DNA of 64,000 bases, from positions 1 through 64,000 of the forward strand of contig REAZ01000009.1 in NCBI GenBank assembly GCA_004294445.1, in the 5' to 3' direction. Origin of the DNA: Cytophagales bacterium (GTDB taxonomy: Bacteria > Bacteroidota > Bacteroidia > Cytophagales > Thermoflexibacteraceae). A program made the translations under genes and the position numbers. Position 1 is the stretch's first letter. Each line of letters starts with the position of its first letter. Shown here in pieces: positions 47,289-58,212 of this stretch. The notes under the pieces are model-generated. The model was given only the letters and a program-made list of their open reading frames with translations, did not search any database and was not told the origin of the DNA.

Positions 47289-47984
47289 TTACTTTTTCTT
47301 CAGTCCTACGCCTTCATAAATCTTTTTAATTGGCAGCTTTACATTTACGGAGGGCATTTCTACCGTTTTGTCTAAGCCTTCTATGAGGTTATTTTCCCAC
47401 TTTTCTTTGGTTTTTTTGATGTACTGCTCCGCTTTGGCTTCGTCTTGGGAAAACATGATGTATTCTTGCAAAGAATCTATGCTTCGGTACTCCTCCAATT
47501 TGTCCGTTTTGTCTATTTTTTCAGTCGAAGGCGACCAAATCTCTATCAAGGCTATAGGATTAGTGAGTTGATTTTTTTCGTTAAAAATTTTCTCTTTAGT
47601 AGTAAGTATGCCATCTGCAATTCTGCTATTCGTTTTGTTAGGAATAGCAAGGTTGTTGGTTTCAGCCACATAGTCAAACTTTTCTTCATCTAACTGTTTT
47701 GCTATCTGCATATTAAGATTGGTAGCAATAATTTGATGTTCTTTGCTTGATTTCATAAGGTTGTATGATTCAATAAGTTGTAAAAATTTTTCCCAAGAGT
47801 AGGCAGGGCTTAAAATAAAATCGACAAGGTCTATCGGCAGGAGTTCTTGGGTATATCTCCAGTAAATCTCTCCTTCTACATACTCAAAAGGCGAGCCTTC
47901 CCCTACTTTTTCGCAGATTTGCTCATACTCTTCCCAAGTATAAAGCGAAATCTGTGGCTGTTTTATCTCTGTTTGGATAAGCAT
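47289..47984 (-). CDS. Uma2 family (DUF820) putative endonuclease
   Basis: 231 residues. The PD-(D/E)xK-type core is suggested by NSRIADGILTTKEK near residue 117, PIALIEIWSPSTEKIDKTDKLEEY near 140-163 (E-x-W-SPST-x-D-x-K is the family signature), and QEYIMFSQDEAKAEQY. Uma2 proteins resemble Holliday-junction-type nucleases and are often multicopy; their role is unknown. It is divergent from the two-component operon. Its codons are A/T-rich. Confidence 0.8.
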   Translation of the reverse strand: MLIQTEIKQPQISLYTWEEYEQICEKVGEGSPFEYVEGEIYWRYTQELLPIDLVDFILSPAYSWEKFLQLIESYNLMKSSKEHQIIATNLNMQIAKQLDEEKFDYVAETNNLAIPNKTNSRIADGILTTKEKIFNEKNQLTNPIALIEIWSPSTEKIDKTDKLEEYRSIDSLQEYIMFSQDEAKAEQYIKKTKEKWENNLIEGLDKTVEMPSVNVKLPIKKIYEGVGLKKK

Positions 47985-50295: not shown

Positions 50296-50587
50296 AAAAC
50301 GCATTACTTCACCCTCAAATTCAGCTAATAAAGAAGAAACTTTTGAATGGTACAAGCAACAGCACATTCGTCTGTTTGGCATGGAGATTATTTTTTGTGC
50401 TGAAACCGTTTATGCCTTTTCTTTCTTATTTTTTATTGCTTTATTTAGGAAAGGGATGGCGAAAGTATTGGAAATAATATCAGAAAACCTAAGTATTATG
50501 ATTCGTAGGCAGGCTAAAGAAAAAGGTAGTCCCCTTTCCCTGCTCACTTACTATCCATATAATCTCATTGTCTTTGCTTGGCAATAA
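50282..50587 (+). pseudogene. Possible remnant of a membrane-protein gene
   Basis: One plus-strand frame is open from within the response-regulator end to a TAA at 50585-50587. It has protein-like sequence: FEWYKQQHIRLFGMEIIF, a hydrophobic helix, then GMAKVLEIISENLSIMIRRQ. The only ATG is internal (50381), so at best it makes 68 residues. It may be the 3' end of a lost gene. This covers most of the 332-base gap between the response regulator and the GHKL gene. Confidence 0.3.
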
Positions 50588-50592
50588 ATATA

Positions 50593-50624
50593 TTTGTAAG
50601 AATTGCAAAAAACTATTATTTTTG
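50593..50624 (+). promoter_or_regulatory. Promoter of the GHKL-receiver-HNH operon (TTTG-N20-TATTTTTG)
   Basis: TTTG at 50593-50596 and TATTTTTG at 50617-50624 are separated by 20 bases, the ideal Bacteroidota -33/-7 layout. The ATG follows 3 bases after the -7 box, so the mRNA would be leaderless or nearly so. This rules out the TTG at 50568 as the start. Confidence 0.65.
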
Positions 50625-50627
50625 AAT

Positions 50628-53246
50628 ATGGAAACTAAAAAAATACCCTTCACTGTAACTGCAAGAACAGCACGACTCATAGGACGTGAAAACGTAACCA
50701 ATGCCGAAGGTGCAGTGATTGAGTTGGTAAAAAATGGTTATGATGCAGACGGTCGTGTATGTTTGGTGTATATTGACAATAGGTATCACAAAATACCAAG
50801 CAGTTTAACTACCGAAGAATATCAATTATTTTGCGAAGAAACTAAGCATAACTCCTTGATTAGCAAGTATTATGAATTTAGTTTAATTGCTTATAATCTC
50901 AAAAATAATATTCCTGAAAACATTTTATCTGAATTACGTAGTTTTTTTAGACAAAAAAACGTGATGTATATTTTTGATAATGGCGTGGGCATGACAGATG
51001 ATATTATCCTTAAACAATGGATGAAGATAGGAACAGCCAATAAACTCGATGACTATGAATCAGAATTAGGGAGAGTAAAAGCAGGTGCGAAGGGAATTGG
51101 TCGTTTTGCTCTTGACCGTTTAGGAAGCAGATGTAAGATGTTCACTTTTCCAAAAAATAAGGAAAAAAGCAATAGTTTATGGGAAGTAAATTGGGAAGAC
51201 TTTGAAAAACAAAATGCTACTATTCAAGAAGTTACTGCAAATTTGACTACAAATATTCCAAAACAATATGCAGATATTTTGCAAGAAGAATTTTCAGCTA
51301 CTCGAGATTCAAAATTACAAGAAACTCTCACCAAATATGATTTTCGACACGGCACATTATTCAAAATTTCGGGCTTGCGTGATGAATGGCACGAAAAAGC
51401 TATGAAAAATTTGTTTAGCAGTTTAGAAATTCTTACACCACCCAATAGCGAAACAACAGATACCGAAAATAATAAATTTGCAGTTTTTTTATACTCTACT
51501 TTCTACGAAAACTATAATGGAAAAGTAAATCACGAGGCTTTTGATGATTATGATTATAAACTTTTTGCAGAATATTTAGCAGACGAAAAGCATACCATAC
51601 GCATACATATATGGCGAAATGAAATTAACAAGCAATTACTGTTAGCAAATAAAGATATTTTTGAATATCCTGATATGAAACAATTCCCTTTTGATAGAAA
51701 AACTATTGAAAAAGGAGATTTTGAACAATATTATACTGTTTTTGACCTTTTAAAAGGCGAACAAACAGAAGAATTAGAAAGATTAGTTAAGCAATTAGGG
51801 AAATTTGATTTTACCTTTTATTTTCTAAAAGGAAGTATTGGAAAAGGAGAAGACCGTCTTAAATTTTATTTTAGAGAATTTAATGCTTCACAAAGACGAG
51901 AATGGTTGAGTAAGTTTGGTGGCATTCGTATTTATAGAGATAATTTTCGAGTAAGACCTTATGGAGAACCAAATACAAGTGCCTATGATTGGCTGCAATT
52001 AGGTGAGAAATCAAGTGGTTTGTCTGTTGTTGCTAAAAAATATAATTTTAAGGTAAGACCTAATCAAGTAACAGGAATTATCAATATTTCACGAATTTAT
52101 AATGAAAACTTAGCAGATAAATCGGGCAGGGAAGGATTGCAAGAAAATGAAACTTTTGCTTTATTCAAAGACATTGTAGATGGCATTATTAAAATTTTTG
52201 AAGATGACCGTAGTACCATTGCTTACAATTTAGATAAATTATATAAATCTAATAGAAAAGCTGAGGAATTAAAAGAGAAGGCTGAATTAGCATTGGAAAA
52301 GCAAAAAATTGCAGACCAGCGTAACGAAAATTTGTTACAAGGGGCAAATATTTTTAGTAACTTTATTGGAAAAATAGAAAAAGGAGAGAAACCGTCAGAA
52401 AATGAAATTCAAGAAGCTAAAAATGCTTTCGAGCAAAGTAAAACTTTTCAAGATGCTTATATTGCTATTCGTGAGGAAGTAGAGGAAAAAGATGAAGAAC
52501 TTAAATTAATGCGAAGTTTGGCAAGTGCAGGGCTAATGATTGCAGGTTTTGCACATGAGTTTAATAGGTTAAGTAAGGAACTTAACAGTCAAGTTCCCTT
52601 TTTAATAGACTATACAAAACGTCTTATCCCAGAAGATAAATTAGCCACATTGAGAAAGCAGCAAAATCCAATTCTTATTGCTGAGGAAATCCAAGAATTA
52701 CATAATCAATTAGAAACTTGGATAAGTTTTGCCTTTGGCATTACACAAAAAGAAAGACGTAAAAGAAAATTAACCAACTTAAATGCTTATTTTGATAAAT
52801 TTATTCAGACTTGGACACATTTATTAGCAGATAGGTATGTAAATATCACATTTACAGCTTCTGAGGAAAATATTTATTTAAAAATTTTTGAAATAGATTT
52901 CAATACTATTTTTGAAAATCTCTTAATAAATTCTATTGAGGCTTTTCAAAAAACAAATAATAACGCAGTAGAAAAAAGTATTACGATTGAATTGATAAAA
53001 TTAGATAATCAAATTAGTATTAATTATCGTGATACAGGTACAGGTTTGTCTCCAATTTTTAAAGACCCTTATTTGATTTTTAGACCTTTTGAAACAACGA
53101 AAAAAGATGATTTAGGCAATGATACGGGAACAGGTTTAGGAATGTGGCTGCTAAAATCTACTGTTGATGAGTATAAAGGTGAAATAAAGTTGTTAGAAAT
53201 AGTGAATGGTTTTGCTTTAAATATTACTTTTGAATATAAAAATTAA
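50628..53246 (+). CDS. Double GHKL ATPase: MORC/Hsp90-like N-terminus plus histidine-kinase-like C-terminus
   Basis: 872 residues from ATG 50628, a start set by the promoter. The N-terminal GHKL ATPase has its N box at E32-L-V-K-N36 with Asp39, G1 at DNGVGM (117-122) and G2 at GAKGIG (153-158), as in paraMORC, MutL and Hsp90 proteins. A long middle region follows, ending in a K/E-rich coiled coil (about 545-620). Then comes a HisKA-like helix GLMIAGFAHEFNRL with His643, and a second ATPase domain: N box ENLLINS ending near Asn768, G1 DTGTGL from 802, and G2 DTGTGLGMW from 832. There is no signal peptide or membrane helix. I infer a cytosolic sensor that could phosphorylate the receiver protein encoded 6 bases downstream. 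Confidence 0.82.
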   Translation: METKKIPFTVTARTARLIGRENVTNAEGAVIELVKNGYDADGRVCLVYIDNRYHKIPSSLTTEEYQLFCEETKHNSLISKYYEFSLIAYNLKNNIPENILSELRSFFRQKNVMYIFDNGVGMTDDIILKQWMKIGTANKLDDYESELGRVKAGAKGIGRFALDRLGSRCKMFTFPKNKEKSNSLWEVNWEDFEKQNATIQEVTANLTTNIPKQYADILQEEFSATRDSKLQETLTKYDFRHGTLFKISGLRDEWHEKAMKNLFSSLEILTPPNSETTDTENNKFAVFLYSTFYENYNGKVNHEAFDDYDYKLFAEYLADEKHTIRIHIWRNEINKQLLLANKDIFEYPDMKQFPFDRKTIEKGDFEQYYTVFDLLKGEQTEELERLVKQLGKFDFTFYFLKGSIGKGEDRLKFYFREFNASQRREWLSKFGGIRIYRDNFRVRPYGEPNTSAYDWLQLGEKSSGLSVVAKKYNFKVRPNQVTGIINISRIYNENLADKSGREGLQENETFALFKDIVDGIIKIFEDDRSTIAYNLDKLYKSNRKAEELKEKAELALEKQKIADQRNENLLQGANIFSNFIGKIEKGEKPSENEIQEAKNAFEQSKTFQDAYIAIREEVEEKDEELKLMRSLASAGLMIAGFAHEFNRLSKELNSQVPFLIDYTKRLIPEDKLATLRKQQNPILIAEEIQELHNQLETWISFAFGITQKERRKRKLTNLNAYFDKFIQTWTHLLADRYVNITFTASEENIYLKIFEIDFNTIFENLLINSIEAFQKTNNNAVEKSITIELIKLDNQISINYRDTGTGLSPIFKDPYLIFRPFETTKKDDLGNDTGTGLGMWLLKSTVDEYKGEIKLLEIVNGFALNITFEYKN

Positions 53247-53252
53247 AAGCAA

Positions 53253-53915
53253 ATGGAAAATACATATAAATTGGGTATTGTTGATGAATATGAAGGAGAT
53301 ATTAATACGCTTTTTCGTTTCTTCGATTTATACTATCCTGAAATAGAAATAGTTACCATAGAATTATCACCTGATATAAATCAAATCATAGATAATATCA
53401 TTAGTAGTCATGTTGATGCAGTAGCTATTGACTTTAATTTGAATGAATATGCAAAAATACCATTTCCTTTTCAAGGAAATATAATTTTAGACACATTGGA
53501 AAAGCTATTGCCTGACTTCCCAGCTATGATATTTACAAACTATACTGCGGATTCCGAAAAAACATCTCCAAAACCTGATTCTTTTTTAGTGATACAAAAA
53601 AAGTATTTTACTCCTAAGTATAAAGATAGTGAAGGTTTAGAATTTGCTCGCAAAATCAAAAGTAAAATAGAAAAATACAAACGTAACCTTGCCGAAAAAC
53701 AAGAACAACTAATTGCTTTACACAACAAACAAATGAAGGTCGAGCTTACGTTGCCTGAACAAACAGAGTTAATAGAACTTGACGAATATTTGGAAAAGGC
53801 AACAGGTGGAAAGTCTTTTTTACCAAAAGATTGGAAAAAGCCTGATACGCTGAAAAAAATTAATGACTTAGCAGATACAGCAGAAAAACTATTAGCAGAA
53901 CTCAAAAAACAATAG
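53253..53915 (+). CDS. Receiver-like response regulator without DNA-binding domain
   Basis: 220 residues. The N-terminal 125 residues follow the receiver pattern: acidic pair D11-E12 after strand 1, phospho-acceptor candidate Asp60 in AVAIDFNLNEY, Thr95 in MIFTNYT, and Lys116/117 in VIQKKYF. The rest is a K/E/L/Q-rich coiled coil plus a short helical tail; there is no winged helix or HTH. Output is therefore likely to be protein-protein contact, perhaps with the nuclease encoded 3 bases downstream. Spacings of 6 and 3 bases to its neighbours show a single operon. The fold call rests on motif spacing. Confidence 0.7.
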   Translation: MENTYKLGIVDEYEGDINTLFRFFDLYYPEIEIVTIELSPDINQIIDNIISSHVDAVAIDFNLNEYAKIPFPFQGNIILDTLEKLLPDFPAMIFTNYTADSEKTSPKPDSFLVIQKKYFTPKYKDSEGLEFARKIKSKIEKYKRNLAEKQEQLIALHNKQMKVELTLPEQTELIELDEYLEKATGGKSFLPKDWKKPDTLKKINDLADTAEKLLAELKKQ

Positions 53916-53918
53916 ACT

Positions 53919-54491
53919 ATGGCTATATTTCGTAACCAAACACCACAAAGACGCACAACTGTTAAAATAAAAGCTAAGTATGGATATTACAAAGATGATT
54001 TACAAAGAGATTTTAATTTTCGTTGTGGCTATTGTGATGACCTTGATAGTTATAGAAAGGCAGATTATCAGATAGACCATTTTGTGCCTCATGAATATTG
54101 TAAAACTATTCAAAAAAATACTTATTCCAACTTGGTATATAGCTGTCGTAACTGCAATAGGGCAAAATGGCATAAATTTCCAACACAAGACGAAAACATA
54201 CATCATGATGGTAAAGTTGGTTTTATTGACCCTTGTCATAATGATTATGCAAATCAATTTGAAAGAGAAAGGGGCAAAATAATTCCAATAACTCCACTTG
54301 GAGAGTATATGTGGCGTGAAATTCACCTGTATTTATTAAGACACGAATTGATACATACCTTAGAAAGACTTGATGATAATATTAGGGAATTACGCAACTT
54401 AAATCTTCCTGATGGGCATATTGCCAGAGCTATTCTGTCCCAAATGTGCGAACAAGCATGGGAAATTCGTGAGCAGTTAACAAACGGTTAA
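53919..54491 (+). CDS. HNH endonuclease
   Basis: 190 residues. The zinc-supported HNH fold is complete: CGYC at 36-39, the catalytic DH at 53-54 in YQIDHFVPH, Asn71 in NLVYSC, CRNC at 76-79, then N80 and K83. The N-terminus is basic (RRTTVKIKAKYGYYK). The C-terminal 80 residues are helical and acidic and could be a control or partner-binding region. It is the last gene of the GHKL-receiver-HNH operon, 3 bases after the receiver gene, and is the presumed effector. The general type resembles HNH proteins found in other defence modules, such as PtuB. Confidence 0.85.
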   Translation: MAIFRNQTPQRRTTVKIKAKYGYYKDDLQRDFNFRCGYCDDLDSYRKADYQIDHFVPHEYCKTIQKNTYSNLVYSCRNCNRAKWHKFPTQDENIHHDGKVGFIDPCHNDYANQFERERGKIIPITPLGEYMWREIHLYLLRHELIHTLERLDDNIRELRNLNLPDGHIARAILSQMCEQAWEIREQLTNG

Positions 54492-54539: not shown

Positions 54540-54582
54540 ACTGTCAGTAGTTCCACTAGGGGTCTTGCGACCTACTGACAGT
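54540..54582. terminator. Bidirectional hairpin between convergent operons
   Basis: ACTGTCAGTAG and CTACTGACAGT pair perfectly over 11 bases. The 21-base loop itself contains GGTC-TTGC-GACC. It separates the HNH gene (+) from the caspase-lipase gene (-). Confidence 0.75.
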
Positions 54583-54597
54583 GTTTTATAAAAATTC

Positions 54598-57500
54598 TTA
54601 CAAAAACTTCACTCTTTCTATCGCTTTTGCCATCGCTTCAGTGCCTTCTTTGGTAGAGAAGTAGCTCATGTGGTCGCAGGCAGAGTAGATAATTTCTTCT
54701 TCTTTTACCCACTTTACATTTTTGATACTGTCCAAACTTACCGCTATGTCGTTTTCAGAGCCAAATAGGAACTCATCAAGCACTTTGCTCTGTATCTTGC
54801 CCAATAGTCTTTGTAGGGAGCCATTTTCTGCCGAACCTGCCGTCAGGAGTGGTGTCAGTTTCGTATTCCCCGCTATGATGGTATAAGGCGTTTTTGGTTG
54901 CGCTGTTTTTGCTAAGTTTTGCAAGAAAGGTTCGTTGCCGTTGAGTTGTTTTAAGCTCACGCCAAGCTCTTTCATGGTTTTGTTGAAAAGGAAAACCATA
55001 GGTGCGGTAGCCCAAGCAAACATTGCTAATTTGCTCATAGCCATAGAGATTGCCATTTGTACCCAGTCTTTGAGGGCAGAAATAGGGCTACCTCCGTTAG
55101 GCGTGCCAAGCATGATGAGGTGATTGGCTATCTCGTCCCCGCGCAAGTTTTCTATCATGTAGCGACTCACCAATCCGCCCATCGAGTGTGCATAGATATG
55201 TACGTTTTTGTCGTGTCCTGATTTCAAACCGATATGTTCTAAGCGTTCTTTGAAAAACTGTGCATTTGCCTCTATTGGCGTGTTCAGGTTTTCGTAATCT
55301 AAGGTAAGCACTGCATCATATTTACTTAGCAGCGTATTTCCTTGAGCGTCCCTACCTATAGCCAAACTTTGGGGCATAGTTTCCGTATCGCCAATGATGC
55401 CATGCACGAAAACGGCAATGTTTTTCACATTTTTGTCTTCTACTTTGCGGGCTATCTGATCGAGTACGTTGCCGTAGTTTTGCTCCTCTTGCACTTTTCG
55501 CAAATAAGTGAAACTATCTGATTTGACGTTCATTGCCAAGTCGAGCAGGGGATATTCAAACTCTCGCCCTAACTTCTTGCTCACCACTTTTTGGAAGAAA
55601 ATCTTGACCGAACCTGTGAGGCTACGTGTCTGCGTATTTGGGTCGACTGTAGGCTCTGCTGCTTCTTTTGGCAAATTGTTCACGCTAATAATGGCGTTGC
55701 CGTCTGCATCTACCTCCGTACTTGCATTGATAGGCAAGAAAAACTCGCCATCAAAAGTGATGGGGAAAATGACATCATCAGCGTCCATGTGTGCGTCTAT
55801 CTTCATGTCAAAGAGAGGTTTGCTCTCGTCTGACTTTTTCAAGTTAGAGATGCCTTTCATCTCCAAAATGCTCAAATCGGTAGTGTCGCCGTCTTGGTTG
55901 CTGAAGCTAATTGGTTGGAATTGGCTGCTTTCTTGAAAAACAGAAGGCACTGCAAAGTCTTTTGACTTCTTTTGGCTTACATCTCTGGTTGCTACCTGCT
56001 GTTTTGGGCTTGCCAAAGCTACTTCTACACCGCTTGCAAAGTTACTTGTAATGCTATTTTTCCCTATGAGGTTATCTGCCTTGCCTGTAGCTACTTTTTT
56101 GGCTTGCGAAGGCATCGTTACGGTAACGAATAGGTTAAATACCGACCAATCGGAACCTGAAGTCTTTTTGACCAATCCTCTCGTTGCCGAATCTACGTCT
56201 GGAGCGGCAGGGAAAGGCAAAGGTGCTTGCTTGAACATCTTGATAAAGTCAGGCGAAAACTCCTCTGTGCTGTAGATGAGCTTTATCACGATTTTTTCCT
56301 GAAACTCACCGCCAAGCAATAAATGCTCGTGTACGGTCAGGTTTACGGGCGAACCATCGAGAACGTCAAAAGAAGTATTTGGCTCTAAGTGCCTGTTTAC
56401 TATCTGTAAACTTGCATCACTTTCAGCATCGATACCGAAGTTTTGCGACATCCAAAGGGCGGTGCAGTAGAGTTTTTTGCTTGTGTTGTTGCGAACCCTC
56501 CAATAAATATCGGGGGTAAGCATCGTGCCTTCGTAATCCTGATTTGCCAATAAGTTCAAACCGTTAGAAGCAATATCCATTGGTTTTTGCTGGGCAATAG
56601 GATTATTGATTTGTTCGCTATCAATGACCTCAATCACTACGGAATTATCTGAAAATGAAGTATCTGGGTTGTTAAGTTCCAAAGTTTTTTCCCACTTCCC
56701 TATAGTTTGTATATAGCTCCACGCCGCTTGCGCCATTGCTCCTTCGCCATGCGTATTGGAGTTTTGTGGCGTTACAGCCTGCCTTCCTCTGATGTCCTTA
56801 CATACTTTTTTGCCGTCTTCATTGAGCAAAAATTCATATTTCTTAGTAAAATCACCTTGAGTAACTTGTATTCTGTATTTTGCTTCGGCAGCATTTGCGG
56901 TGATGCGTGAATATGGATTTACACTTACATCTGACTCTATTTGTTGTTTTAGGAATTTGGTATCCTCCTCTTTGCCATCTATGAAGAACAAAATTGGCTT
57001 CATTGCCGAAGAAATTAATTTCGCCTTATAAATTGCATTGGCATCGACAGCAAAAGCGGAACGGTTCGGATTGTCTTGGAACTCAATGAGGCTGTAATCT
57101 TTCTCTACTTTCTTGATGATTGCCTTCGCTACGTCATTGCCTTTGAACTCATCAATAGAGAGTTTATATTCTTTGTTTCCTGTTTTGTCGGCATAATCGA
57201 ACACCGCCAAAACGTTAGGGTCACTTGGTGAAAAGTTCTTTGATAAGCCGTGCATCTGCCCAAAGTTCACTATCCAGCCCTTGAGGTCATCTCTGTAATA
57301 AATGCGCAAGAAGTCTTCTTTTGGGGGCAAGCCGCCCAAAAATGTTCTGTCCAAACTTGCAAGTTCGGTAACACCTTCCAAACTTGTAGGCACGCAAATT
57401 TCCAACTGCGGATTCTGCTCTGGCACAAGGCTAATTACTTTTGCCTTTACTTTTGACATCAAATCGCCGTAGCTCATGTCGCCTTTGGCACATTTGAGTG

Positions 57501-58212
57501 TTTCGATGAGTGAAAAGTTGAACGCTCCACGTTTTTGCCCATCAAGTGTTGTTTCTTTGGCAAATTCGTTGCTTCTTGCCGCTGCAAGTGCCACATAATT
57601 ACCTCTTTCCATCTGCACGATGCCATCGGCACGTAGCTTATAAAAACCTTCCTCATAGCCCAAGTACGCACTCAAAGGTCTTGCTTTGTTGGTAGTTGGG
57701 ATTTGCCGAGTCGTAATATCTGCCTTTGAAGGAGCAACGCTGCGTGTGCCGCCTCCTGAGTGGCAGCAGTCCATCACTACTACTAATCTTGGGCTTTTTT
57801 TGCTCACTTTCCAAAGCAAATAAGCCGTTTCTTTATCTACCAAATCGCCTACGCCTCCGTCTTCGGTGCGGCTATCCACACAGACCATAGATTCGTTGAG
57901 CTTGTCTGGCTCCATCTGCCAAAACTCTGGCGGTGCTGCCTCCTGCGCCCCATGCCCACTATAGTAGAAAAAAGCATCATCTTGGTCAGTAGCTTGGCTA
58001 AGATGCTCCAAAAAACCTTTGACTACATTCGCCCTTGTAGCTTCCTTATTTAAAAGTTTGACTACTTTGAGGTTAAGTCCATCAGCTTTGCAGCGAAAAT
58101 CTAAAAATTCATGAATGGCATTTACATCATTGGCACAGCCATTAAGCTTGTGGCTTGGAATTGGATAATCGTCAATTCCGACTAAGAGGGCATAAATATT
58201 CCTTTTTGACAT
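54598..58212 (-). CDS. Caspase-family peptidase fused to an alpha/beta-hydrolase (lipase)
   Basis: 1204 residues from the ATG at 58212 (MSKRNIYALLVGIDDYP); the distal ATG at 58245 adds an unconserved leader. The N-terminus is a C14 caspase/metacaspase domain with catalytic His87 in YYSGHGAQ and Cys150 in VMDCCHSGG. A middle region of about 600 residues holds beta-rich segments, some resembling DUF4384-like domains (SKKLYCTALWMSQNFGID). The C-terminal 260 residues are an alpha/beta-hydrolase: IAVFVHGIIGD, nucleophile Ser1010 in AHSMGG, LGTPNGGSP, and a possible catalytic His in CDHMSYF. There is no signal peptide or membrane helix. I infer that proteolysis by the caspase could release or control the lipase, a suicide-type design. 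Confidence 0.85.
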   Translation of the reverse strand: MSKRNIYALLVGIDDYPIPSHKLNGCANDVNAIHEFLDFRCKADGLNLKVVKLLNKEATRANVVKGFLEHLSQATDQDDAFFYYSGHGAQEAAPPEFWQMEPDKLNESMVCVDSRTEDGGVGDLVDKETAYLLWKVSKKSPRLVVVMDCCHSGGGTRSVAPSKADITTRQIPTTNKARPLSAYLGYEEGFYKLRADGIVQMERGNYVALAAARSNEFAKETTLDGQKRGAFNFSLIETLKCAKGDMSYGDLMSKVKAKVISLVPEQNPQLEICVPTSLEGVTELASLDRTFLGGLPPKEDFLRIYYRDDLKGWIVNFGQMHGLSKNFSPSDPNVLAVFDYADKTGNKEYKLSIDEFKGNDVAKAIIKKVEKDYSLIEFQDNPNRSAFAVDANAIYKAKLISSAMKPILFFIDGKEEDTKFLKQQIESDVSVNPYSRITANAAEAKYRIQVTQGDFTKKYEFLLNEDGKKVCKDIRGRQAVTPQNSNTHGEGAMAQAAWSYIQTIGKWEKTLELNNPDTSFSDNSVVIEVIDSEQINNPIAQQKPMDIASNGLNLLANQDYEGTMLTPDIYWRVRNNTSKKLYCTALWMSQNFGIDAESDASLQIVNRHLEPNTSFDVLDGSPVNLTVHEHLLLGGEFQEKIVIKLIYSTEEFSPDFIKMFKQAPLPFPAAPDVDSATRGLVKKTSGSDWSVFNLFVTVTMPSQAKKVATGKADNLIGKNSITSNFASGVEVALASPKQQVATRDVSQKKSKDFAVPSVFQESSQFQPISFSNQDGDTTDLSILEMKGISNLKKSDESKPLFDMKIDAHMDADDVIFPITFDGEFFLPINASTEVDADGNAIISVNNLPKEAAEPTVDPNTQTRSLTGSVKIFFQKVVSKKLGREFEYPLLDLAMNVKSDSFTYLRKVQEEQNYGNVLDQIARKVEDKNVKNIAVFVHGIIGDTETMPQSLAIGRDAQGNTLLSKYDAVLTLDYENLNTPIEANAQFFKERLEHIGLKSGHDKNVHIYAHSMGGLVSRYMIENLRGDEIANHLIMLGTPNGGSPISALKDWVQMAISMAMSKLAMFAWATAPMVFLFNKTMKELGVSLKQLNGNEPFLQNLAKTAQPKTPYTIIAGNTKLTPLLTAGSAENGSLQRLLGKIQSKVLDEFLFGSENDIAVSLDSIKNVKWVKEEEIIYSACDHMSYFSTKEGTEAMAKAIERVKFL

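What the first reader, a model, noticed from the sequence alone, without database searches (positions are those of the whole stretch)
54598..58212. Caspase-lipase fusion convergent with the nuclease unit
Seen: one 1204-residue frame with a C14 caspase domain (His87, Cys150) at the N-terminus and an alpha/beta-hydrolase with Ser1010 in AHSMGG at the C-terminus, separated by about 600 residues. Known: bacterial caspase-like proteases act in several abortive-infection systems, and lipases or phospholipases are recurring membrane-damaging effectors. Inference: a single-protein module in which a protease controls a lipase, perhaps with self-cleavage in the middle region. Its position next to the GHKL-receiver-HNH unit and a Uma2 gene hints at a defence or stress island.
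Basis: partly seen in the sequence, partly recalled or inferred. Interest (0 to 1): 0.68.

Follow-up and report, generated by a model that had tools for sequence, protein, structure and literature searches.

The report
Bacterial caspase fused to a lipase
One bacterial protein carries a caspase-like protease at one end and a lipase at the other, with conserved caspase-type cutting sites in the floppy links between them, so it looks like a membrane-damaging enzyme that sits inactive in the cell until its own protease, or a partner's, cuts it free.

Summary
On the minus strand, 58212-54598 encodes 1204 aa with an intact caspase domain (H87, C150) and an intact lipase-type alpha/beta-hydrolase (S1010, D1155, H1181). 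It is no isolated accident: I found 47 full-length fusions (this one included) in Bacteroidota and on plasmids of cyanobacteria, Rhizobium and Deinococcus. Caspase residues are conserved in 47/47, the hydrolase Ser in 46/47. The first ~700 residues form a 'chassis' (caspase plus unnamed beta-sandwich domains) that in relatives carries an unrelated GDSL lipase or an N-terminal cell-wall amidase instead. The caspase has the acidic pocket of Arg/Lys-cutting metacaspases. The window protein contains exactly four TR[SGD][VL] motifs (R157, R678, R743, R863), all in loops AlphaFold leaves disordered; these Arg are conserved in divergent homologues. In 20 of 47 loci a CHAT, caspase or STAND-NTPase gene lies within 5 kb, and one Nostoc protein fuses the module to a caspase-STAND receptor. 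Best reading: a self-gated pro-lipase, executioner of a STAND/CHAT-triggered suicide or immunity pathway. The defence-island reading of this particular window is not supported. Cleavage, lipid hydrolysis and trigger are untested.

The parts
54598..58212 (-). Whole gene, 1204 aa caspase-chassis-lipase fusion
57400..58194 (-). Peptidase_C14 caspase domain (residues 7-271); H87 codon 57952-57954, C150 codon 57763-57765, S1-pocket acids D29 and D148
   Evidence: Foldseek best hits metacaspase 9/4, GSU0716, MALT1
56107..57399 (-). Remainder of the conserved chassis (to about residue 702): beta-sandwich / Ig-like domains without any Pfam family
57742..57744 (-). R157 codon (GTRSV) seven residues after the catalytic Cys, in a pLDDT<50 segment; Arg or Lys in 47/47 fusions
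56179..56181 (-). R678 codon (ATRGL), candidate self-cleavage site in disordered loop 670-685
55984..55986 (-). R743 codon (ATRDV), candidate self-cleavage site in disordered loop 741-752, in the spacer between chassis and lipase
55624..55626 (-). R863 codon (QTRSL), candidate cleavage site just before the hydrolase; may instead be structural
54940..55413 (-). alpha/beta-hydrolase (DUF7379) core; S1010 codon 55183-55185
   Evidence: Foldseek: BlEst2, Proteus, Pseudomonas and Burkholderia lipases
54670..54750 (-). Rest of the catalytic triad: D1155 codon 54748-54750 and H1181 codon 54670-54672
54540..54582 (.). 11-bp perfect inverted repeat between the convergent HNH gene and the caspase-lipase gene, terminator-like (the terminator scan itself listed none; its loop limit is 8)

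Best explanation
The gene encodes a cytosolic, self-gated pro-lipase. An N-terminal metacaspase-like protease with Arg/Lys P1 specificity is tied through beta-sandwich domains and disordered links to a C-terminal lipase that is held inactive or sequestered in the intact chain. When triggered, the caspase (in cis, or a partner caspase, CHAT or STAND-NTPase protein acting in trans) cuts after Arg in the TR(S/G/D)(V/L) motifs and frees the lipase with its hydrophobic lid. The lipase then attacks the cell's own membrane lipids and kills or arrests the cell, most likely as an anti-invader (abortive-infection-type) or programmed-death response. Shown by sequence: the two active sites, their conservation, the conserved Arg motifs in disordered loops, exchange of the payload for a GDSL lipase, and linkage to CHAT/caspase/STAND genes in relatives. 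Inferred: the cleavage, the release, the lipid substrate, the trigger and the biological role.
For: Both active sites intact: caspase H, C and D148 in 79/79 chassis, D29 in 78/79 (one gap); hydrolase Ser 46/47, Asp 47/47, His 47/47. Whole-chain AlphaFold model (pLDDT 80) matches metacaspases/MALT1 at the N-terminus and true lipases at the C-terminus. Asp95/Asp211-type acids that hold basic P1 residues in TbMC2 (PMC6426788) are present as D29 and D148. All four TR[SGD][VL] motifs in the window protein fall in pLDDT<50 loops; none of 20,000 shuffles reached four. Conserved Arg are over-represented among conserved columns in disordered loops (4 of 8, against 6 of 168 other conserved columns; p=3e-4). 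Where Arg is replaced at R157, R743 and R863 it is mostly by Lys. A second model on another alignment gives the same two disordered loops. Payload exchange for GDSL lipases or Amidase_2 points to envelope damage. CHAT genes lie within 5 kb of at least 10 of about 36 fusions against 2.4% expected (P~1e-8), several overlapping the fusion gene's end. Nostoc 5183 fuses the module to caspase-nSTAND1-ligand-binding domains. Precedents: protease-activated pro-nucleases and Canu (PMC12799240); caspase with neighbouring alpha/beta-hydrolase gene in VMAP systems (PMC7159879).
Against: No biochemistry. Single-chain AlphaFold does not show whether the lipase is blocked in the intact form. R678 is also conserved in chassis-only proteins (24/32), where there is no fused payload to release, so it may serve chassis activation or structure. 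R863 lies in a longer conserved RSLGGSxK motif and persists in two caspase-less, degenerate copies. The motif was defined after seeing the loops, so its P-values are partly circular. More than half of the loci, including this window and T. ruber, have no detected partner gene. 'Lipase' rests on fold and lid; substrate unknown.
Confidence: 0.6

Rival explanations
1. The same caspase-gated lipase, but serving developmental or stress-induced lysis (or cell-cell competition) rather than anti-invader defence.
For: In the window's own family it is a standalone chromosomal gene found at some level in 7 of 7 genera, without an adjacent sensor in most members; it branches with its own family in the tree.
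Against: Copies on conjugative plasmids in other phyla, association with CHAT/STAND genes, and fusion to a STAND receptor point to conflict systems.
Confidence: 0.22
2. The conserved loop arginines are structural or binding residues, and caspase and lipase act on separate outside substrates without self-cleavage.
For: R678 is kept in chassis-only proteins; R863 sits in a longer conserved motif and persists in caspase-less copies.
Against: The sites lie in low-confidence loops of variable length, share P2/P1'/P2' preferences (cross-ranking of two sites supports this moderately) and tolerate Lys, as expected of a metacaspase P1.
Confidence: 0.2
3. A secreted or housekeeping lipase with a built-in maturation protease.
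For: Pro-forms of lipases exist (BlEst2 has a propeptide-form entry in the PDB).
Against: No N-terminal hydrophobic segment (best 19-residue mean 0.49) and no clear membrane span (best 1.42, in the lid); relatives next to CHAT/STAND genes; no Pfam family of secreted enzymes in the middle.
Confidence: 0.08
4. Part of a local defence island with the GHKL-receiver-HNH unit and Uma2.
For: Physical proximity only.
Against: Separate convergent units divided by an inverted repeat, unlike GC, not conserved in two congeners.
Confidence: 0.04

Closest known systems
Canu caspase-nuclease systems (KaeCanABC) and Hachiman/AVAST gated nucleases (PMC12799240)
   Same: Protease of caspase or trypsin type unlocks a pro-enzyme by cutting disordered gating segments; both active sites and the cut sites needed for defence; MALT1-like caspase followed by an Ig-like fold.
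   Different: There the payload is a nuclease on a separate chain and the caspase sites hold conserved Gly; here the payload is a lipase on the same chain and the candidate sites hold conserved Arg.
VMAP / MoxR-vWA ternary conflict systems (Kaur et al. 2020, PMC7159879)
   Different: There two separate genes with VMAP, MoxR and vWA; here a single chain, and no MoxR or vWA gene was recognised beside it.
Amidase_2-caspase-GDSL lipase protein of Chitinophaga pinensis (Asplund-Samuelsson et al. 2012, PMC3501461)
   Same: Caspase combined with a lipase in one protein; by Pfam content the same kind as the chassis relatives L070-L072.
   Different: GDSL lipase instead of DUF7379; no cleavage motif, chassis or partner genes were described there.
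Metacaspases / orthocaspases (AtMC4, AtMC9, TbMC2, GSU0716)
   Same: His-Cys dyad, fold, acidic S1 pocket for Arg/Lys.
   Different: Those solved proteins carry no lipase.
Bacterial gasdermin systems
   Same: Works like them in outline: caspase-like protease releases a membrane-destroying effector (general knowledge; reviews listed).
   Different: An enzyme instead of a pore-former; no gasdermin domain found.

Membership tests
Peptidase C14, metacaspase/orthocaspase type | His-Cys catalytic dyad in a caspase fold | tested here: met
   H87/C150, 47/47 fusions and 32/32 chassis relatives; Pfam 65.7 bits against cut-off 21.4; Foldseek E 2e-12 to metacaspase 9
Peptidase C14, metacaspase/orthocaspase type | Acidic S1 pocket (TbMC2 Asp95/Asp211 equivalents) | tested here: met
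   D29 and D148 conserved; family feature from PMC6426788; equivalence by motif position, not by superposition
Peptidase C14, metacaspase/orthocaspase type | Cleavage after Arg/Lys | not testable with these tools
   needs enzyme assay
alpha/beta-hydrolase, lipase type (PF24096 DUF7379) | Profile match over the curated cut-off | tested here: met
   56.4 bits against 33
alpha/beta-hydrolase, lipase type (PF24096 DUF7379) | Ser-Asp-His triad and nucleophile elbow | tested here: met
   S1010/D1155/H1181
alpha/beta-hydrolase, lipase type (PF24096 DUF7379) | Hydrolysis of membrane lipids | not testable with these tools
   hydrophobic lid segment is suggestive only
EACC1-associated caspase (NF047832) | Score above the NCBIfam cut-off | tested here: not met
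   42.2 bits against 140
VMAP ternary conflict system | MoxR ATPase, vWA and VMAP genes at the locus | tested here: not met
   the eight window proteins scanned give no MoxR, vWA or VMAP; not tested for every ORF or every relative
Canu caspase-nuclease defence | Partner MBL-type pro-nuclease | tested here: not met
   payload is an alpha/beta-hydrolase on the same chain; no such nuclease among the window proteins scanned
Bacterial gasdermin system | Gasdermin pore-forming protein | tested here: not met
   no gasdermin match in Pfam or PADLOC for the protein or the neighbours scanned

The most novel reading that the evidence does not exclude
A cross-phylum family of single-chain 'caspase-activated lipases': a common caspase chassis with exchangeable envelope-destroying payloads (DUF7379 or GDSL lipase, amidase) that frees its payload by cutting repeated TR(S/G/D)(V/L) sites, and serves as the executioner of STAND- and CHAT-based bacterial immunity, an enzymatic counterpart of gasdermin.
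Probability: 0.45. Interest if true: 0.8.

Novelty: new variant of a known kind. Interest (0 to 1): 0.62.

Why it matters
Protease-activated killers in bacteria are known for pores (gasdermins) and nucleases (Canu, Hachiman, AVAST). A caspase-gated lipase would add membrane-lipid destruction, in the simplest possible form: protease and payload on one chain with the candidate cut sites visible in the sequence. It would give a function to the described but untested pairing of caspases with alpha/beta-hydrolases in conflict systems, and the four Arg motifs, C150 and S1010 make the idea directly testable with point mutants.

Tried and rejected
(1) Reading the finding on the + strand gives only stops; the gene is on the minus strand. 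(2) 'Linker is unstructured': rejected; most of it folds with confidence. (3) Lipase-only homologues as a natural control for the Arg sites: of four candidates, two (L028, L062) are probably cut off by contig ends, and the other two (L063, L065, sister genomes) are degenerate (AQGMGC instead of AHSMGG); R678 became Lys there but the R743 and R863 equivalents stay, so this is inconclusive. (4) Whether the loop motifs share one consensus: cross-ranking by profile is better than chance (mean percentile 0.12 and 0.22) but could partly reflect loop composition. (5) Viral contigs and phages: no fusion found. (6) Foldseek on the middle region: only weak hits to Ig-like/beta-sandwich proteins, whole-length rmsd mostly above 20 A, so no specific homology is claimed. 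(7) Literature: no paper found for DUF7379 or 'caspase-lipase' in the held library; subscription papers and preprints are mostly not held.

Full report
What is there. The finding is real and correctly placed, but lies on the minus strand: ATG 58212, stop 54598, 1204 aa. Residue numbers below count from that Met. Pfam places Peptidase_C14 at residues 7-271 (E 6e-18) and DUF7379, an alpha/beta-hydrolase, at 934-1091 (E 5e-15); nothing matches between.

It is a family. The host is close to Thermoflexibacter ruber (orthologues 77 and 81% identical). Some match is found in all seven genera of the host's family, full-length in most. Searches over about 1,000 genomes plus the plasmid collection gave 47 full-length fusions, the window's included: the host's order, the order of G462 (27 of 299 genomes by my count of full-length rows), and plasmids of Anabaena, Nostoc, Rhizobium and Deinococcus at 28-31% identity over 97-99% of the length. 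NCBI calls the plasmid ones only 'caspase family protein'. The plasmid copies form one group nested among Bacteroidota sequences, while the window protein groups with its own family: mobile in part, but apparently inherited within Thermoflexibacteraceae.

A chassis with exchangeable payloads. A further 32 proteins match only model positions 1 to about 655, i.e. residues 1 to about 702. Some end there; others carry a GDSL-type lipase at the C-terminus (L173, L183, L186, L189, L190, L068), or an N-terminal Amidase_2 with or without GDSL (L072, L185). Two unrelated lipase folds and a cell-wall amidase on one chassis point to the cell envelope as target (inference).

Structure. The whole chain minus five residues was modelled (mean pLDDT 80, pTM 0.64). 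Foldseek matches metacaspases 9 and 4, GSU0716 and MALT1 for the caspase part and true lipases (BlEst2, Proteus, Pseudomonas, Burkholderia) for the hydrolase. A separate model of residues 285-865 on a 67-row alignment (pLDDT 83, pTM 0.80) is made of beta-rich domains with weak Ig-like/beta-sandwich matches only, and no Pfam family recurs among the 67 rows.

Candidate cleavage sites. Segments with pLDDT below 50 include 151-163, 670-685, 741-751 and 852-866 (+5 offset; the second model repeats 670-685 and 741-752). The window protein has exactly four TR[SGDN][VLI] tetrapeptides - with Arg at 157 (TRSV), 678 (TRGL), 743 (TRDV) and 863 (TRSL) - and all four lie in these segments; 20,000 shuffles never gave four. 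Among 35 fusions below 50% identity to one another, these Arg are conserved at 97, 80, 80 and 91%; R678 and R743 are the only isolated conserved residues in otherwise variable stretches of the fusion. In all 47 fusions Arg or Lys occupies the R157 and R863 columns in 47/47 and the R743 column in 44/47; R678 is Arg in 39/47, several of the rest having an Arg shifted within the loop. The caspase has both S1 acids (D29, D148) that accommodate basic P1 residues in TbMC2 (PMC6426788). Protease specificity and candidate sites therefore agree. Caveats: the motif was read off the loops first; R157 may be part of the active-site loop; R863 is part of a longer conserved motif; R678 is also kept in chassis-only relatives.

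Neighbours. In 20 of 47 fusion loci a CHAT, caspase or nSTAND1 gene lies within 5 kb (detection by a few query sequences and some loci cut by contig ends, so a lower bound). For CHAT alone the genome-wide density (331 in 193 Mb over 33 genomes) predicts 2.4% per locus; at least 10 of about 36 have one (P~1e-8). This treats loci as independent, which related genomes are not. Several CHAT genes overlap or abut the end of the fusion gene (L109, L150, L156, L161, L166). L056 has a divergent caspase-nSTAND1 gene, L031 (81% identical orthologue) a divergent caspase-FGE gene. In Nostoc 5183 one 3057-aa protein joins the caspase-lipase module to a second caspase, nSTAND1 and a periplasmic-binding-type domain. 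The window's own copy and that of T. ruber have no such neighbour; if the mechanism holds, they must be triggered in cis or by a partner elsewhere. G000 holds 7 CHAT matches and 5 further PF00656 matches despite being only 62% complete.

The local 'island'. The GHKL-receiver-HNH unit is convergent with the fusion, separated by 106 bp containing an 11-bp perfect inverted repeat, and is 30-34% GC against 44% for the fusion gene. Neither congener has it next to the fusion.

Known kinds. Kaur et al. 2020 report that in VMAP systems a caspase domain always has a neighbouring alpha/beta-hydrolase gene (PMC7159879); Asplund-Samuelsson et al. 2012 noted a C. pinensis protein with amidase, caspase and GDSL lipase (PMC3501461); Tuck et al. 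2025 showed protease-unlocked pro-nucleases, including a caspase-nuclease system (PMC12799240). The present protein works like these but joins protease and lipase in one chain with visible Arg motifs; I found no description of it in the held library. I rate it a new variant of a known kind.

Shown versus inferred. Shown: gene, domains, conserved residues, disordered loops with conserved Arg, payload exchange, neighbour enrichment. Inferred: that the Arg are cut, that cutting activates the lipase, that the substrate is the cell's own membrane, and that the trigger is an invader.

Noticed in passing
window 50568-54491 (+): Three-gene low-GC unit: protein with two GHKL/HATPase regions (892 aa), a 220-aa receiver-like protein without Pfam match, and an HNH nuclease resembling the PtuB HNH protein of Septu (PADLOC E 4e-13).
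   Followed up: no
window 47289-47984 (-): Uma2-type putative nuclease, matches PADLOC candidate PDC-S03.
   Followed up: no
window 54540-54582: Perfect 11-bp inverted repeat between two convergent genes, terminator-like.
   Followed up: partly
L105:3491-12664: 3057-aa Nostoc plasmid protein: caspase-chassis-lipase, second caspase, nSTAND1 and Peripla_BP_6 ligand-binding domain in one chain.
   Followed up: partly
L068:1570-6660 and L069:6087-11165: About 1,700-aa proteins; L068 joins the caspase chassis to a GDSL lipase, an MPAB/rubber-oxygenase domain and DUF5995 (L069 is similar in length and chassis match but was not scanned).
   Followed up: partly
L063:5267-7600 and L065:282-2615: Caspase-less copies of the linker-lipase part whose nucleophile elbow has decayed (AQGMGC); possible pseudoenzymes.
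   Followed up: partly
L067:2354-7573: 1,739-aa fusion with about 630 extra N-terminal residues (weak leucine-rich-repeat matches) before the caspase-lipase.
   Followed up: no
L031:105-2768: Divergent caspase-FGE (sulfatase-modifying) gene 203 bp from the 81% identical orthologue, absent from the window locus.
   Followed up: no
L181, L182, L191 (N-terminal ~250-280 aa): Chassis proteins with N-terminal extensions that match no Pfam family: possibly further payload types.
   Followed up: no
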